From a virus, in the IMG/VR virus record IMGVR_UViG_3300023184_000081, positions 16,242 to 80,241 of that record: DNA of 64,000 bases; one strand, written 5' to 3'. Below, in pieces: positions 2-56,808 of this stretch. The position numbers were made by a program, and so were the translations under genes. Position 1 is the stretch's first letter. Each line of letters starts with the position of its first letter. Below the pieces are notes generated by a model that had not been told where the DNA came from, made no database searches, and worked only from the letters and a program-made list of their open reading frames with translations.

Positions 2-1183
2 CAGTTGAGCACCGGTGCCGTGGATATATGTATAGTTAATCCGACATCTAGTCCTGCATGTCCAGGATATCAAATTGCTATGTGCGCTATTAATGAATTA
101 TTTACTCCATCATGTCCTGGATATCAGCAAGCATATCTCACTCAACAGTGCGGAATAAATTCATTATATGATACTGCATGTCCAGGATACGCAGCCACTT
201 ATTTACAATATCAATGTTCTTTAAGTCCACTATATTCTTCAACGTGTGAAGGTTACGCAGCTGCATATAAGACACAGCAATGCGATCTGGACGGATTATA
301 CGCAAGAGATTGTCCGAATTATGCGGAAGCCTATGCTAGAAGATATGTTCTAAATATTTCCCCAACTACGTCTTATCAAGCTGGGCCAGCGGCGGGTGGT
401 GACCAGTCATCGTATAATAGTCAGAACTCAAATTCCGGACCAGCAACGATGGGCTATAGTGGTCCTGGTGCAACAAACGTCACAACAACCCAACCAGTAA
501 CTTCGATTAGTAATACTGGACAAGTTTCTACTGGAGTTAATTTGACGAGCAATAGCACAGTTAACGCGATTATCTCCGCGCCACCAATGACTGGTCCAAT
601 GGCAACAAATACCAACAATCCTGTTGCTTCCGCTATTGCTCCGGTTCAAACACAAATGGCTGATGGACCAATGGCAACGTCCGCGCCAGCGCAAAGACCA
701 GCAGAATCGTCACCAGAGCAAAGATCATCTACTGCATCTAACGACGGACCAGCAACTGATAGTTCTACACCTGCTCCAAGGCAATCTTCTACATCGGCTC
801 AAGCAAGTCCTGCGCCGCAGCAGAGTAATACTCAAAGTGCTCCGGCACCAACTGCTCGCCAAGAACTTCAAGCCAAACGAGAACAGGCTGCAAAGGCACA
901 AGCAGTTGAAGCCGGAAAGAACTTGGCAAATGAGATGGGCAAGGCAGCGTCAATGGAACAACAGATCTCCGTGCAAAATGTAGTTCTTCAAGCAATGGGT
1001 TATAGTCCAGGATTCGCTGGGTATACAAAGGGATATATCCCCGACGTTGCAGGATATAAATCGCACACAGCATATGCCAATCAAAAGAATGTGGACAACG
1101 CAAGACTAAGTCGTGGTTTATTTGGTGCCACTGATAGATTACATAATGATATGATCGAATCACAATATCAATTAGAAAAATAA
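2..1183 (+). CDS. Cys-repeat structural-type protein, 5' end cut by window edge
   Basis: The reading frame is open to the left edge, so the true start is probably outside the window. The visible N-terminal part holds about five tandem units of roughly 21 residues built around CPGY with paired cysteines (CPGYQIA, CPGYQQAY, CPGYAATY, CEGYAAAY, CPNYAEAY). A long Ser/Thr/Pro/Gln-rich low-complexity linker follows (about residues 125-300), then a C-terminal part with GYSPGFAGY, KGYIPDVAGY and an amphipathic tail. Similar CPGY-type repeats occur in large hypothetical proteins of marine T4-like phages as I recall them; a virion or fibre role is inference. It lies 11 bp upstream of a membrane-anchored coiled-coil protein. 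Function unknown. Confidence 0.7.
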   Translation, partial: QLSTGAVDICIVNPTSSPACPGYQIAMCAINELFTPSCPGYQQAYLTQQCGINSLYDTACPGYAATYLQYQCSLSPLYSSTCEGYAAAYKTQQCDLDGLYARDCPNYAEAYARRYVLNISPTTSYQAGPAAGGDQSSYNSQNSNSGPATMGYSGPGATNVTTTQPVTSISNTGQVSTGVNLTSNSTVNAIISAPPMTGPMATNTNNPVASAIAPVQTQMADGPMATSAPAQRPAESSPEQRSSTASNDGPATDSSTPAPRQSSTSAQASPAPQQSNTQSAPAPTARQELQAKREQAAKAQAVEAGKNLANEMGKAASMEQQISVQNVVLQAMGYSPGFAGYTKGYIPDVAGYKSHTAYANQKNVDNARLSRGLFGATDRLHNDMIESQYQLEK

Positions 1184-10556: not shown

Positions 10557-10564
10557 TATAAATA
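10557..10564 (+). promoter_or_regulatory. late promoter TATAAATA
   Basis: Exact T4-type late -10 octamer. The downstream ATG (10570) is 6 nt after it, about where transcription starts in T4 late promoters, so the message may be leaderless. Confidence 0.75.
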
Positions 10565-10569
10565 AGTGT

Positions 10570-11181
10570 ATGTTAAAATTCACAGAATTCATCGCAGAAG
10601 ATATGAGAGCAAGTTCGCTTTCTATTTTCGATATAGATGACACTCTCTTTCGCACAACAACAAAAGTGTTCGTTGTAAAAGGTGATAGACGTGTTAAAAC
10701 ATTAACACCAGCAGAATTTAATGTCTACAAATTAAAATCTGGAGAAGAATTCGACTTCTCCGAGTTTCGTTCGGCTGAAGTATTTAACGCCACTGCGCGT
10801 CCTGTCGATACTGTATTTAAAACAGCAAAGAAGATGCTGAGTAAATTCAGAGACAGTCCTCAGAAAAAAATCATTATCATCACAGCTAGAGCTGATCTAG
10901 ATGATAAAAAACTATTCCTAGCTACATTTAAGAAATATGGATTCGATATCAATCGTGTTCATGTTGAACGTGCAGGCAATAGAAGTATACCGGGTCCGGC
11001 TGCAAAAGCACAGATCACTTCTGAGTATCTACAAAAAGGAAATTACACTGTTGCAAGAATGTTTGATGACGCTGTAAAAAATCTTCAATCATTCCTTGCG
11101 CTCAAAAGAGAATTTCCTAAAGTTAATTTCGAAGCATTCTTGATACATGAGAATGGTTCAATTACTAGATACGGAGGATAG
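10570..11181 (+). CDS. HAD-family phosphatase-like protein with capsid-targeting peptide
   Basis: 203 aa. The N-terminus MLKFTEFIAE matches the T4 capsid-targeting sequence (as in the internal proteins, MKTYQEFIAE) and ends in the gp21 protease motif IAE. The HAD fold follows: motif I DIDDTLF (nucleophile Asp), motif II in IIITARAD, motif IV in MFDDAVKN. It could act on nucleotide 5' phosphates or 3' ends (polynucleotide-kinase-like phosphatase), but the substrate is not shown. Predicted to be packed into the head, trimmed by the prohead protease and delivered to the host; this is inference from the peptide. Confidence 0.8.
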   Translation: MLKFTEFIAEDMRASSLSIFDIDDTLFRTTTKVFVVKGDRRVKTLTPAEFNVYKLKSGEEFDFSEFRSAEVFNATARPVDTVFKTAKKMLSKFRDSPQKKIIIITARADLDDKKLFLATFKKYGFDINRVHVERAGNRSIPGPAAKAQITSEYLQKGNYTVARMFDDAVKNLQSFLALKREFPKVNFEAFLIHENGSITRYGG

Positions 11182-33312: not shown

Positions 33313-33341
33313 TTGACAATTCATTATAAATAGGGTATAAT
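33313..33341 (+). promoter_or_regulatory. strong early promoter of the porin gene
   Basis: TTGACA (33313-33318), 17-bp spacer, TATAAT (33336-33341). The spacer itself contains a late octamer, so the gene may be read early and late. Confidence 0.85.
33325..33332 (+). promoter_or_regulatory. late promoter TATAAATA nested in the early promoter
   Basis: Exact octamer placed inside the 17-bp spacer of the early promoter; 57 bp before ATG 33390. Confidence 0.6.
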
Positions 33342-33389: not shown

Positions 33390-34097
33390 ATGAAGAAAAT
33401 TATTTTTGCACTATTGTTTGTAAGCGGTATTGCACAAGCGCAAGTAACTGGTAATGTTGGAGTGACTTCCGACTATCGTTTCCGTGGCATCAGTCAAACA
33501 CAAAATTCACAAGCTCTACAAGGCGGAATTGATTATTCTCATAAGAGTGGATTCTATGTTGGCAACTGGAATAGCAGCGTCAGTAGTCTTGTTTATACCG
33601 ACAGCATCGGTCTAGAAAATGACGTTTATGGTGGCTTTAAGAAAGAACTTTTTAAGGGCGTAACCGTCGACGTAGGATCGTATAATTATTACTTTTCGCG
33701 TTCTGGCAATGCTTTCAACAGCAATAGCAATACACATGAAGTCTATGCTGGAGTTTCGACAGGTCCGGTAAGTTTCAAGTATAGTCAGTCTCTTGGTGAT
33801 TACTTCGCCGTTGCTAATAGCAAAGGAACGAAATATGTTCAAGCTGATCTGAATATGCCTATCATAGAAAAACTAACGGGTAATGTTCATTTTGGTCACG
33901 CTTTTATTGCAAATCATAAAGATAGCAATTTTACTGATATCAAACTTGGCGCAACTTACAATATTGTTGGTGTAGATGTAGGCGCGCACTATTACACAAA
34001 TCGTGGAATGACAGCTGCCACAAAATTAGCTGATACAGTTTCTGGAGAAAAACTCTACAAAAACGCATTTGTCTTTTCTGTAGCGAAATCATTCTAA
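33390..34097 (+). CDS. TorF-type outer-membrane porin
   Basis: 235 aa. Signal peptide MKKIIFALLFVSGIAQAQ, then VTGNVGVTSDYRFRGISQT, the hallmark start of the TorF (Gcw_chp) putative porin family of proteobacteria, followed by alternating beta strands with aromatic girdles and a C-terminal Phe (VFSVAKSF), the usual BAM recognition end. It should insert in the outer membrane as a small beta-barrel. Leader with TTGGAG. A Rho-independent terminator follows, so it forms its own transcription unit with a double early/late promoter. Likely host-derived. Confidence 0.9.
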   Translation: MKKIIFALLFVSGIAQAQVTGNVGVTSDYRFRGISQTQNSQALQGGIDYSHKSGFYVGNWNSSVSSLVYTDSIGLENDVYGGFKKELFKGVTVDVGSYNYYFSRSGNAFNSNSNTHEVYAGVSTGPVSFKYSQSLGDYFAVANSKGTKYVQADLNMPIIEKLTGNVHFGHAFIANHKDSNFTDIKLGATYNIVGVDVGAHYYTNRGMTAATKLADTVSGEKLYKNAFVFSVAKSF

Positions 34098-34513: not shown

Positions 34514-34591
34514 CATGCAATATCTCAAAGCGGAAAGTCATGAGTCCGTAGAGAAAAAGATTTCGGTTCGATTCCGAATTGCGTGTGACCA
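34514..34591 (+). ncRNA. tRNA-like RNA without a D-arm (possible decayed tRNA-Met)
   Basis: CATGCAA pairs with TTGCGTG as an acceptor-like stem. TCTC/GAGA and CGGA/TCCG form one long arm whose loop AAGTCATGAG contains CAT. A perfect T-arm follows (TTCGG TTCGATT CCGAA). There is no D-arm, and the acceptor is followed by TGACCA rather than N-CCA. A second CATGCAA at 34466 and pairing of AATATGGT (34456-34463) with ACCATATT (34588-34595) suggest a larger fold. The 170 bp before it hold no other recognised gene. Confidence 0.4.
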
Positions 34592-34966: not shown

Positions 34967-34975
34967 GTAGAAAAA

Positions 34976-35067
34976 GGAGAGTAATGCAGCGGGGTTGGTC
35001 CTGCGACCAGCCTTGAAAACTGGGTTCTGAGAAATCGGATGGGGTTCGACTCCTCTGCTCTCCGCCA
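34976..35067 (+). tRNA. tRNA-Ser (TGA)
   Basis: Acceptor GGAGAGT/GCTCTCC, loop CTTGAAA gives TGA, long variable hairpin TCTGA-GAAA-TCGGA, CCA encoded. Confidence 0.88.
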
Positions 35068-36305: not shown

Positions 36306-36381
36306 GGTAATGTAGCATAGTGACTAATGCAGTTCCTTCATACGGAAAAGATCGTTGGTTTGAGTCCAACCATTACTACCA
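36306..36381 (+). tRNA. tRNA-Met (CAT), elongator type or Ile-lysidine type
   Basis: Acceptor GGTAATG/CATTACT, loop TTCATAC gives CAT, T-loop TTTGAGT, CCA encoded. It has a normal first base pair, so it is not the initiator. Met or (if C34 is modified to lysidine) Ile cannot be separated by sequence reading. Confidence 0.85.
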
Positions 36382-41014: not shown

Positions 41015-41584
41015 ATGCCTTCAGTATTTTTAATCGCAGATACACATTTCGGACATAAAGGAATGTGTACGTTTACGCGAAATGATGGAATTACAAAACT
41101 TAGACCATTTGATACGCCTGAAGAAATGGACGAATTCATGGTCAAAGCATGGAATGATAAAGTGAAGCCTACTGATAAAGTATATCATCTTGGCGATGTC
41201 GTCATCAATAAAAAGTCTTTGTCTATTATGGATAGACTCAATGGCGATAAAGTTCTGATTCGAGGCAACCATGATATCTTTCATGACACGGAATACAGAA
41301 AATACTTTCGTGAACTTCGTGCGTATCATGTTATGAACGGAATGATTCTGAGTCATATTCCTATTCATGATGAAAGTCTTGGTCGATTCGGAACTAACAT
41401 TCATGGACATCTACACGCAAATCGCGTAAAGAAGAATGGCGAAATTGATGTTAGATATCATTGTGTATCAGCCGAGCATGTAGATTTTACTCCGATTCTT
41501 TTTGAAGACGTTATCAAACGCATTGTAGAAGAAGGTGGACATGTCGGTTTCAAAAATGGGAATTATCAAAGCCCTGCTAGTTAA
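41015..41584 (+). CDS. calcineurin-like phosphoesterase
   Basis: 189 aa. Metal motifs in order: DTHFGH (about 9-14), GDVV (about 60), GNHD (about 88), SHIPIH and HGHLH (about 129). A binuclear-metal phosphatase or nuclease; substrate unknown. Its last codons overlap a tRNA-like element that continues downstream, so the C-terminal GNYQSPAS may reflect acquired sequence. Confidence 0.9.
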   Translation: MPSVFLIADTHFGHKGMCTFTRNDGITKLRPFDTPEEMDEFMVKAWNDKVKPTDKVYHLGDVVINKKSLSIMDRLNGDKVLIRGNHDIFHDTEYRKYFRELRAYHVMNGMILSHIPIHDESLGRFGTNIHGHLHANRVKKNGEIDVRYHCVSAEHVDFTPILFEDVIKRIVEEGGHVGFKNGNYQSPAS

Positions 41585-41641
41585 ATGGCATAACGATCAA
41601 TTTGTAGTGATCAGTAGGCAGTTCGATTCTGTCACAGGGTA
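41571..41641 (+). tRNA. tRNA-Thr-like element with 8-nt anticodon loop
   Basis: GCCCTG/CAGGGT acceptor (6 bp), T-arm GGCAG TTCGATT CTGTC, anticodon stem GATCA/TGATC with loop ATTTGTAG, containing TGT. The start (GCCCTG.TAGTT) matches the tRNA-Thr of the array. It lacks an encoded CCA and overlaps the preceding CDS by 14 bp. Degraded copy, or a tRNA with an expanded loop. Confidence 0.5.
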
Positions 41642-50767: not shown

Positions 50768-51631
50768 ATGATACTTGTCGATTTGAATCAGACGATGATT
50801 TCCAATCTGATGATGCATCTTTCATATACGAAAGATGACGTTGTGGAAGAAGAAATGCTTCGCCATATGATTCTTAACTCTCTACGATCCTATCGTTCAA
50901 AATTCTATCAGGAATATGGAGAACTAGTCATATGCTGTGATGCTCAGAATTATTGGCGCAGGAGTATATTCCCACATTACAAAGCAAATCGAAAGAAGTC
51001 GCGAGATTCTTCAGGTCTTGACTGGAATACACTATTCGAATCTCTCAATAAAATTCGTGACGAGATCCGTGATTATCTTCCATACAAAGTCCTACGTATC
51101 GATCGATGTGAAGCTGATGATATCATCGCTGCAATCTGTCATGAGCATGGTAAATTCTTAGGTGGAAATGCTGATAAGATTTTGATTCTTTCTGGTGATA
51201 AGGACTTCGCACAGCTTCAGAAATATTCGAATGTCTATCAGTATGCGCCAGTTCAAAAGAAGATGATCGCGATCAATAATCCTGAGAGCTTTCGTAAAGA
51301 ACATATCATGCTCGGAGATAGATCAGATGGAGTGCCGAATTTCATCTCGGATGATGATACATTTGTAGCAGATAAGCGACAGAAACCTATTCGCCGTGAT
51401 AAAATTGCAGACTGGTCTCGTATGGAACCTGAGCAATTTTGTTCTGGAGAAATGCTTCGTGGATACAAACGAAATCAGATGCTGATTGATCTAGATATGA
51501 TTCCTCAGGATTTACAAAAACAATGTATATCAGAATTCGAATCTGCGAAATGTAATGATCGTTCAAAAATATTTAATTATTTCATACAAAATCGTCTTGG
51601 AAGTCTTACAGAATCAATTTCGGATTTTTGA
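50768..51631 (+). CDS. rnh: T4 Rnh-type 5'-3' exonuclease (FEN1-like)
   Basis: 287 aa. Acidic metal residues are in ILVDLNQTMI (start), EADDIIAAI, SGDKDFAQLQ and GDRSDGVPN, the complete FEN1/T4 RNase H pattern; the H3TH region follows. It removes RNA primers during lagging-strand synthesis, completing the replication set with gp43, gp41, gp61 and ligase. Confidence 0.93.
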   Translation: MILVDLNQTMISNLMMHLSYTKDDVVEEEMLRHMILNSLRSYRSKFYQEYGELVICCDAQNYWRRSIFPHYKANRKKSRDSSGLDWNTLFESLNKIRDEIRDYLPYKVLRIDRCEADDIIAAICHEHGKFLGGNADKILILSGDKDFAQLQKYSNVYQYAPVQKKMIAINNPESFRKEHIMLGDRSDGVPNFISDDDTFVADKRQKPIRRDKIADWSRMEPEQFCSGEMLRGYKRNQMLIDLDMIPQDLQKQCISEFESAKCNDRSKIFNYFIQNRLGSLTESISDF

Positions 51632-51633
51632 GA

Positions 51634-51641
51634 TATAAATA
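51634..51641 (+). promoter_or_regulatory. late promoter TATAAATA before the initiator tRNA
   Basis: Exact octamer; its end is 3 bp from the tRNA 5' end, so transcription would start almost at the mature tRNA end. Confidence 0.75.
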
Positions 51642-51644
51642 AAT

Positions 51645-51719
51645 CGCGGGGTGGGAAAGGAGTATTCCGCTTGGCTCATAACCAAGAGATCGTTGGTGCG
51701 AATCCAACCCCCGCAACCA
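51645..51719 (+). tRNA. initiator-type tRNA-fMet (CAT)
   Basis: Acceptor CGCGGGG/CCCCGCA leaves the C1-A72 mismatch that marks bacterial initiator tRNA. The anticodon arm CTTGG CTCATAA CCAAG gives CAT. Discriminator A and CCA are encoded. Two of three initiator G-C pairs remain. The T-loop is TGCGAAT, not TTCxAAT. It stands alone, far from the main array. Confidence 0.85.
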
Positions 51720-51741
51720 ATTACTATAACATGGAGCATAT

Positions 51742-52161
51742 ATGATAAAAAGTCTTGCTGAAATGATTGATGAAATCGAGAAACAAAAAAATGCCGCATC
51801 TCAAACAAAACTTCTTAAGAAGTATGCCTCAGCTGCAATGAAAGCTGTTGTTGGCTATGCGATGGATCCTGGTGTTAAGTTCCTTCTTCCACCGTCCGAT
51901 CCGCCGTTTCGTCCAATGCCAGATGGATCAGATGCGCAAGGTCGTCTTATTGCAGATCACAGGAAATTTATTTACTTTGTAGATTCTCCAGATGGCAGAG
52001 GCATTAGCGCACTTAAACGCGAACAGATGTTCATTCAGATGTTAGAAACTCTAGATGTTCGTGATGCACAACTGTTGCTTCGGATTAAAAATAAAAAACT
52101 CACGATTAGAATGGACGCGGTAAAAGCTGCATTCCCGTCTCTAACTGCAAAGTGGAAATGA
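51742..52161 (+). CDS. DUF6433-like conserved phage protein
   Basis: 139 aa. KSLAEMIDEIEKQK, VGYAMDPGVKFLLPPSDPP and LKREQMFIQMLETL with AFPSLTAKW follow the DUF6433 pattern of T4-like phages. TGGAG ribosome site. Probably transcribed from the late promoter in front of the tRNA. Function unknown. Confidence 0.8.
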   Translation: MIKSLAEMIDEIEKQKNAASQTKLLKKYASAAMKAVVGYAMDPGVKFLLPPSDPPFRPMPDGSDAQGRLIADHRKFIYFVDSPDGRGISALKREQMFIQMLETLDVRDAQLLLRIKNKKLTIRMDAVKAAFPSLTAKWK

Positions 52162-56064: not shown

Positions 56065-56606
56065 AAAAAATTATTGCTCTTGGTGGCGAACCTGCAACTG
56101 GTAAGACAACATTGATGTGGAGAATTATTGATAGCGCAACAGATTGGCAGAAGATTGAACCAAAGAAAACTCTTTCAGCAATTCGTTCAGAATCTCTCGA
56201 TCTAACCATACTGGGTAAGTATGATCGAGGCCTCGAATTCGCAGGAACAGATCGTCTATCAATGAGTGTTCAACCTGCAGCTACAGAGTTCATCAAAGAA
56301 GCCACAGGAAATATTCTATTTGAGGGAGATAGGTTATTCAATAGAAAATTCATCGACGCTATCATATCGTGCAATTGTCTATTCTCTCTAATCTATATTG
56401 AAGCGAGTCGCAATGAGCTTCAAAATCGACATATCGATCGAAAAGACACACAGACAGAAACGTTCCTTAAGAGTAGGCAAACTAAGTATAGCAATATCGT
56501 AAGGAGTTTAGATCTTATGGATATCATTCATACATTCAAGAATGATAATATGGATCAGCAGACAATTATTTACGATTTTATAAGAGCAAATATATTTAAT
56601 AAATAG
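56061..56606 (+). CDS. P-loop kinase of the modification island
   Basis: 181 aa, GTG start overlapping the previous stop. Walker A ALGGEPATGKTTLM (about residues 6-19); ILFEGDRLFN holds an Asp-containing strand, and SRNELQNRHIDRKD an Arg-rich lid. Fits a small nucleotide or base kinase; with the helical-domain neighbour it is a good candidate for 5-hydroxymethyl-pyrimidine DNA kinase. Confidence 0.8.
   Translation: MKKIIALGGEPATGKTTLMWRIIDSATDWQKIEPKKTLSAIRSESLDLTILGKYDRGLEFAGTDRLSMSVQPAATEFIKEATGNILFEGDRLFNRKFIDAIISCNCLFSLIYIEASRNELQNRHIDRKDTQTETFLKSRQTKYSNIVRSLDLMDIIHTFKNDNMDQQTIIYDFIRANIFNK
56598..56605 (+). promoter_or_regulatory. possible late promoter AATAAATA
   Basis: AATAAATAG overlaps the kinase stop codon; ATG 56611 lies 6 nt after it, as at the 10557 late promoter. 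Confidence 0.4.
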
Positions 56607-56610
56607 CATT

Positions 56611-56808
56611 ATGAAAACAGCTAAACTTCCAATTTATTCTTTAGATACAGTTCTTGTAGAAGGTTGGTTCATACGCTGCTCTATAATGAAGGGCAACATA
56701 CTTGTTGTTATGTTGAATTCAATAACTGAAGAATGTCGGATTGGCTTTTTTAAAACTGAAAAAAAAGCCAATCGTTTTGTGAATGATATAATATATGCTC
56801 TCGGATAA
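56611..56808 (+). CDS. small protein of unknown function
   Basis: 65 aa. Beta strands (VLVEGWFIRCSIMKGNILVVML) then a helix with KTEKKANRFVND. 14-bp overlap with the next gene. No Shine-Dalgarno is visible. Confidence 0.6.
   Translation: MKTAKLPIYSLDTVLVEGWFIRCSIMKGNILVVMLNSITEECRIGFFKTEKKANRFVNDIIYALG

What the first reader, a model, noticed from the sequence alone, without database searches (positions are those of the whole stretch)
51634..51719. Phage initiator-type tRNA with its own late promoter
A tRNA-CAT with the C1-A72 mismatch, CTCATAA anticodon loop and encoded CCA stands apart from the 25-gene array, 3 bp after an exact TATAAATA. Elongator tRNA-Met is encoded separately at 36306. 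Known biology: leaderless mRNAs depend strongly on initiator tRNA. A phage that supplies initiator tRNA late and also carries leaderless mRNAs is a suggestive pairing. Deviations to explain: only two of three G-C anticodon-stem pairs, and TGCGAAT in the T-loop.
Basis: partly seen in the sequence, partly recalled or inferred. Interest (0 to 1): 0.88.

Follow-up and report, generated by a model that had tools for sequence, protein, structure and literature searches.

The report
Swappable phage initiator tRNA gene
This T4-like virus of bacteria carries its own copy of the special tRNA that starts protein synthesis, in a fixed genomic slot where relatives carry different versions of the same kind of tRNA; the nearby promoter is real but probably belongs to the next gene, and the suggested link to leaderless messages does not hold up.

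Summary
In detail: 51645-51719 is a tRNA-CAT with C1-A72 mismatch, R11:Y24, G2-C71/C3-G70, CTCATAA and CCA, 3 nt after TATAAATA. Seven contigs carry a tRNA in this slot. They fall into three dissimilar types whose stems covary, yet 1-72 is unpaired in all. An initiator-type tRNA is clearly favoured there.

Both "deviations" are recurrent in phage initiators. In scans that ignored the anticodon stem, 8/56 viral versus 64/75 cellular initiator-type tRNAs kept all three G-C pairs; G30-C40 persists. TGCGAAT fits the UGNRA T-loop, and all 19 viral initiators with G55 carry A18 instead of G18.

"Own late promoter" is doubtful. TATAAATA survives in five tRNA-less sister contigs, and by T4 geometry would start RNA at tRNA nucleotide 3. 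Readthrough plus RNase P processing is likelier; a leaderless tRNA is not excluded.

The leaderless pairing fails: a near-leaderless start is kept on tRNA-less sister contigs, and a 155-kb contig has leaderless starts but no detectable initiator tRNA.

Verdict: a phage initiator tRNA of a widespread, apparently little-described variant class, possibly shaped by host nucleases that cut initiator tRNA. Function is inferred, not shown.

The parts
51645..51719 (+). initiator-type tRNA gene (anticodon CAT, C1-A72 mismatch, G11-C24, encoded CCA)
   Evidence: ARAGORN and Rfam; cloverleaf covariation among slot homologues with 1-72 never paired
51634..51641 (+). TATAAATA, T4-type late promoter element; predicted start 51647 (tRNA nt 3) by T4 spacing
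   Evidence: conserved in 12 contigs, five of them without the tRNA; T4 positions -13 to -6 from PMC1524935 and A(-13) in PMC2988020
50768..51631 (+). T4 RNase H-like 5'-3' exonuclease, upstream neighbour; stop codon 13 nt before the tRNA
   Evidence: PHROG 107; Pfam 5_3_exonuc_N and RNaseH_C
51742..52161 (+). DUF6433 gene, downstream neighbour, preceded by ATGGAG; likely served by the TATAAATA
   Evidence: PHROG 461, PF20025; the promoter stays in front of it in tRNA-less sisters

Best explanation
The gene encodes a phage initiator tRNA that can be charged with Met, formylated by the host enzyme and used to start translation of phage proteins. It sits in a dedicated slot between the RNase H-like gene and DUF6433, into which this lineage has placed at least three different initiator tRNAs by recombination. 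It most likely matures by RNase P from transcripts that read through from the RNase H gene, while the TATAAATA serves mainly the downstream genes. Loss of the 29-41 G-C pair and the UGNRA T-loop with A18 are shared variations of phage initiator tRNAs: G30-C40, contacted by the ribosome head, is kept, while the neighbouring pairs are free or selected to vary. Shown: sequence identity elements, covariation, slot conservation, class statistics. Inferred: charging, formylation, use in initiation, route of transcription, selective reason.
For: Slot homologues of three dissimilar tRNA types: 13 stem pairs change on both sides (0/500 shuffles reach this), while 1-72 is unpaired in 6/6 and R11:Y24 is kept. 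Type C in the slot (L006) is identical from nt 2 to nt 73 to tRNAs of 10 other phage contigs, so it was imported as a cassette. Stem-agnostic scans analysed: all three G-C pairs in 8/56 viral against 64/75 cellular initiator-type tRNAs (Fisher 7e-17); 30-40 G-C kept in 53/56 viral. G55 goes with A18 in 19/19, matching the UGNRA motif whose G contacts an outside A (PMC2258182). Contact of A1339 with G30-C40, and its weight, from PMC11497404. Promoter retained in tRNA-less sisters.
Against: No expression, charging or formylation data. The full set of three G-C pairs, highly conserved in cellular initiators (PMC7949028), is not met. Five sister contigs do without a tRNA here, so it is dispensable at least in this place. 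L006 has lost the encoded CCA. MFE folding does not recover the full cloverleaf of type A. Viral sequences in the comparison are not phylogenetically independent.
Confidence: 0.74

Rival explanations
1. One reading: a late promoter makes the initiator tRNA specifically late, to support the phage's leaderless mRNAs.
For: Exact TATAAATA 3 nt upstream. Near-leaderless late starts are real: the gene at 10570 has ATG 5-8 nt after TATAAATA in 29 homologues.
Against: Predicted start is inside the tRNA. The promoter is kept in tRNA-less sisters. A near-leaderless start with identical 5-nt spacing is kept on tRNA-less contigs L004/L005. G001 (154,689 nt) has ATG 5 nt after TATAAATA at two sites but no initiator tRNA. 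GC-rich CGCGGGG follows the element, whereas T4 late promoters are AT-rich there (PMC2988020).
Confidence: 0.07
2. Leaderless tRNA: the late promoter starts at tRNA nt 1 or 2, so the tRNA is made without a 5' leader and without RNase P. The unpaired nt 1 makes this tolerable.
For: Spacing of only 3 nt. G1 (a purine start after T) in 4 of 7 slot contigs, against 8 of the other 109 unique viral initiators. The type C cousins outside the slot carry C1 (7) or A1 (3) and only the slot copy carries G1.
Against: T4 spacing puts the start at nt 3 (PMC1524935). The window and L003/L007 have C1. G1 could simply be slot flank left at the recombination junction.
Confidence: 0.12
3. Anti-defence: the tRNA replaces host initiator tRNA cut by VapC-type nucleases, and its altered stem pairs 29-41 and 31-39 make it resistant.
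For: VapC toxins cut initiator tRNA between anticodon stem and loop, and extra initiator genes partly rescue (PMC8522696). 31-39 is altered in 24/56 viral against 1/75 cellular. Phage tRNAs with anticodon-loop changes are proposed to be nuclease-resistant (PMC10264068).
Against: The loop itself is the unchanged CTCATAA, and in the window 31-39 is still G-C. PMC10264068 reports that phages generally avoid encoding tRNA-fMet where VapC cuts. Host and its nucleases are unknown. Compatible with, rather than opposed to, the best explanation.
Confidence: 0.3
4. Passenger: a drifting or elongator-acting tRNA, or a tRNA-like 5' element of the DUF6433 mRNA, with no role in initiation.
For: Absent from five sister contigs; CCA lost in L006; late transcripts would carry most of the tRNA at their 5' end.
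Against: Compensatory stem changes with 1-72 unpaired in all; three tRNA types in one slot, all of initiator type.
Confidence: 0.07

Closest known systems
Bacterial initiator tRNA (tRNA-fMet, e.g. E. coli metZWV/metY)
   Same: CAU anticodon in CTCATAA, 1-72 mismatch, G2-C71/C3-G70, R11:Y24, encoded CCA
   Different: 29-41 is U-A instead of G-C; 7-nt D-loop with A18; UGNRA T-loop with G55; R11:Y24 is G-C rather than A-U
Initiator-type tRNAs in named phages, deposited as plain tRNA-Met: Mycobacterium PegLeg, Caulobacter CcrColossus, Alishewanella Slicko01
   Same: R11:Y24 and the same U-A/G-C/G-C anticodon stem
   Different: 1-72 is a weak U-A pair there; TTC T-loops; not in this slot
Initiator tRNAs of other uncultured phages, mostly in tRNA arrays (L228, L148, L218 for type A; L267, L268 for type C)
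   Same: 83-90% identical (type A) and nt 2-73 identical (type C); type A shares the A18/G55 elbow
   Different: no TATAAATA next to them; N1 is C or A, not G
T4 late promoter (gp55/gp33/gp45 system)
   Same: exact TATAAATA; gp45-like clamp and clamp loader encoded on the same record
   Different: spacing to the tRNA is too short for a normal 5' end; gp55 and gp33 not identified here

Membership tests
Bacterial initiator tRNA (tRNA-fMet) | CAU anticodon | tested here: met
Bacterial initiator tRNA (tRNA-fMet) | no Watson-Crick pair at 1-72 | tested here: met
   C-A in the window; C-A, C-U or G-A in all slot homologues
Bacterial initiator tRNA (tRNA-fMet) | purine 11:pyrimidine 24 | tested here: met
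   G11-C24; G-C or A-U in all slot homologues
Bacterial initiator tRNA (tRNA-fMet) | G2-C71 and C3-G70 (formylation determinants, PMC7949028) | tested here: met
   invariant in 6/6
Bacterial initiator tRNA (tRNA-fMet) | three consecutive G-C pairs 29-41, 30-40, 31-39 | tested here: not met
   two of three. Not strictly defining: 11 of 75 cellular and 48 of 56 viral initiator-type tRNAs also lack it. Hence filed as an initiator-type variant, not as a canonical tRNA-fMet
Bacterial initiator tRNA (tRNA-fMet) | formylated and used at the P site | not testable with these tools
   needs biochemistry
T4-type late promoter of the tRNA | TATAAATA consensus | tested here: met
   conserved in 12 contigs
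T4-type late promoter of the tRNA | start site about 6 nt downstream, at or before the first nt of the product | tested here: not met
   predicted start at tRNA nt 3 from -13..-6 numbering; actual start not measured
T4-type late promoter of the tRNA | late sigma gp55 and coactivator gp33 encoded | tested here: inconclusive
   PF16805 (gp33) not found but no control rang; gp55 not searched; the record is a fragment; gp45-like clamp found
Leaderless-mRNA partnership | initiator tRNA and leaderless starts occur together | tested here: not met
   a near-leaderless start is kept on tRNA-less L004/L005; G001 has leaderless starts and no initiator tRNA

The most novel reading that the evidence does not exclude
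Phage initiator tRNAs form a widespread functional class that has kept the 1-72 mismatch and G30-C40 but dropped the flanking G-C pairs, and in a subclass swapped the G18-U55 elbow contact for A18-G55. The selection came from host nucleases or surveillance acting on host initiator tRNA, giving the phage a protected, swappable route to start translation. In this slot it may even be made as a leaderless tRNA from a late promoter.
Probability: 0.3. Interest if true: 0.82.

Novelty: new variant of a known kind. Interest (0 to 1): 0.6.

Why it matters
The three G-C pairs are regarded as a highly conserved signature of initiator tRNA. Phages appear to have run a large natural experiment that keeps only the middle pair and, in part, uses a different elbow contact. 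That makes the role of each pair in P-site selection, and possible resistance to initiator-tRNA nucleases, directly testable. It also warns that phage tRNAs deposited as plain tRNA-Met include many initiator types.

Tried and rejected
(2) Pairing with the phage peptide deformylase found on the same record: PF01327 in 3 of 16 long records picked through initiator-type or related tRNA-Met hits against 2 of 8 others, so no association. (3) Phage-encoded Met-tRNA formyltransferase: none on the 80-kb record. (4) Named phages near this one: no nucleotide match in the phage collection. (5) The first anticodon-stem scan was biased because it queried the window's own stem, so I repeated it with a pattern that leaves the stem free. 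(6) A parsing script with a wrong acceptor search range was discarded and redone. (7) Secondary-structure folding of single sequences was uninformative. (9) gp33 search gave no usable answer.

Full report
What is there. The window is part of an 80,241-nt virus record from a T4-like phage: family-B DNA polymerase, UvsX-like recombinase, DNA primase, gp45-like clamp, clamp loader and RegA-type translation repressor are all encoded. At 51645-51719 ARAGORN and Rfam call a tRNA-CAT. Read by hand it is CGCGGGG TG GGAA AGGAGTA TTCC G CTTGG CTCATAA CCAAG AGATC GTTGG TGCGAAT CCAAC CCCCGCA A CCA. TATAAATA is at 51634-51641.

Is it an initiator tRNA? Relatives were fetched with three neighbouring proteins. 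In the same slot, between the RNase H-like gene and DUF6433, seven contigs including this one carry a tRNA and five close sisters carry none. The tRNAs fall into three types that differ strongly in acceptor, anticodon and T stems. On their alignment 13 of 21 pairs change on both sides, none of 500 shuffles does as well, and the 1-72 position is unpaired in all six distinct sequences (C-A, C-U, G-A). R11:Y24, G2-C71, C3-G70 and G30-C40 are also kept. Type C (L006) is identical from nt 2 to nt 73 to tRNAs of ten other phage contigs that carry C1 or A1, so the slot has been refilled by recombination. A slot that receives different tRNAs, all with an open 1-72, is strong evidence for initiator function, although function itself was not measured.

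The two deviations. To ask whether the missing G-C pair is odd, I scanned viral contigs and cellular genomes with one pattern that fixes the anticodon loop and parts of the variable and T loops but leaves the stem free. Among unique CAT tRNAs with R11:Y24 and a mismatched 1-72, all three G-C pairs are present in 8 of 56 viral and 64 of 75 cellular sequences (Fisher 7e-17). By position: 29-41 is G-C in 17/56 viral against 65/75 cellular; 31-39 in 32/56 against 74/75; 30-40 in 53/56 against 75/75. The pair kept is the one gripped by A1339 of 16S rRNA, and swapping it costs 20-fold in vivo (PMC11497404). The T-loop TGCGA fits the UGNRA motif, in which the G commonly contacts an outside A (PMC2258182). 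In agreement, all 19 viral initiators with G55 have A at position 18 instead of G (D-loops and T-loops listed; position 18 assigned by me from the loop sequence). G55 appears in 20 of 155 viral initiator-type tRNAs and 22 of 1001 other viral tRNAs.

The promoter. T4's TATAAATA spans -13 to -6 (PMC1524935; PMC2988020). That puts the start at 51647, nt 3 of the tRNA, and a GC-rich stretch follows where T4 late promoters are AT-rich. Near-leaderless genes in this phage group put ATG 5 to 8 nt after the element, in keeping with a start near +6. The element is kept in the five sisters without tRNA and stands before DUF6433, so it most likely serves the downstream genes. The upstream stop codon is 13 nt from the tRNA, so readthrough and RNase P can make it. 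One observation leaves room for a leaderless tRNA: G1 is found in four of seven slot contigs but in only 8 of the other 109 unique viral initiators.

The leaderless pairing. The near-leaderless start at 10570 is real and conserved (29 homologues). But a second one, at 56611, keeps its 5-nt spacing on contigs L004 and L005, which lack the tRNA in this slot. A 154,689-nt contig with leaderless starts has 21 tRNAs and none of initiator type. The pairing is therefore not supported; these records are fragments, so a distant initiator gene cannot be excluded everywhere.

Mechanism. Most likely the tRNA is charged and formylated by host enzymes and starts phage proteins, with reduced or attacked host initiator supply as a possible reason. 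VapC toxins cut initiator tRNA at the stem-loop junction (PMC8522696). A hypothesis that phage tRNAs resist such nucleases is published, but its authors state that phages generally avoid encoding tRNA-fMet where VapC is known (PMC10264068). The abundance of initiator-type tRNAs in IMG/VR found here points the other way. In ten literature searches of the held library I found no paper describing this class; that is not proof of novelty.

Named examples. Initiator-type tRNAs with the same U-A/G-C/G-C stem are deposited as plain tRNA-Met in Mycobacterium phage PegLeg, Caulobacter phage CcrColossus and Alishewanella phage Slicko01. The gene is therefore a variant of a known kind, not a new kind.

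Noticed in passing
L387:3512-4051 (same virus record, about 12.7 kb before the window): Phage peptide deformylase (PHROG 2890; PF01327 E 4.6e-37). Tested for association with initiator tRNA: none seen.
   Followed up: yes
window 10557-10570 and 56598-56611: Two conserved near-leaderless starts: ATG exactly 5 nt after TATAAATA / AATAAATA; the first has 5-8 nt in 29 homologues, the second is kept in tRNA-less sisters.
   Followed up: partly
19 viral initiator tRNAs (e.g. in L148, L218, L228, L138, L241; window 51645-51719): A18 and G55 replace G18 and U55 together in every case, an elbow swap that fits the UGNRA T-loop motif.
   Followed up: partly
window 36306-36381: CAT tRNA with loop TTCATAC, G1-U72 and C11-G24: could be elongator Met or tRNA-Ile(CAU); identity not settled.
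   Followed up: no
window 34975-35064 and 34514-34586: Sub-threshold tRNA-like Rfam matches inside the array (34.9 and 25.3 bits), possibly tRNAs that ARAGORN missed.
   Followed up: no
window 41571-41641: tRNA-like match with a four-base anticodon call (ttgt) overlapping the end of the phosphoesterase gene at 41015-41584.
   Followed up: no
window 51614-51808, minus strand: A 64-aa ORF (GGWIRTNDLLVMSQ...) antisense to the tRNA looks like a spurious ORF read through a tRNA gene, not a gene.
   Followed up: no
window 33390-34097: Gcw_chp (PF09694) protein of a type known from bacteria, with TATAAATA at 33325 upstream.
   Followed up: no
L387:5249-5932: tRNA methyltransferase (PHROG 4752) on the same phage record; might modify phage or host tRNAs.
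   Followed up: no
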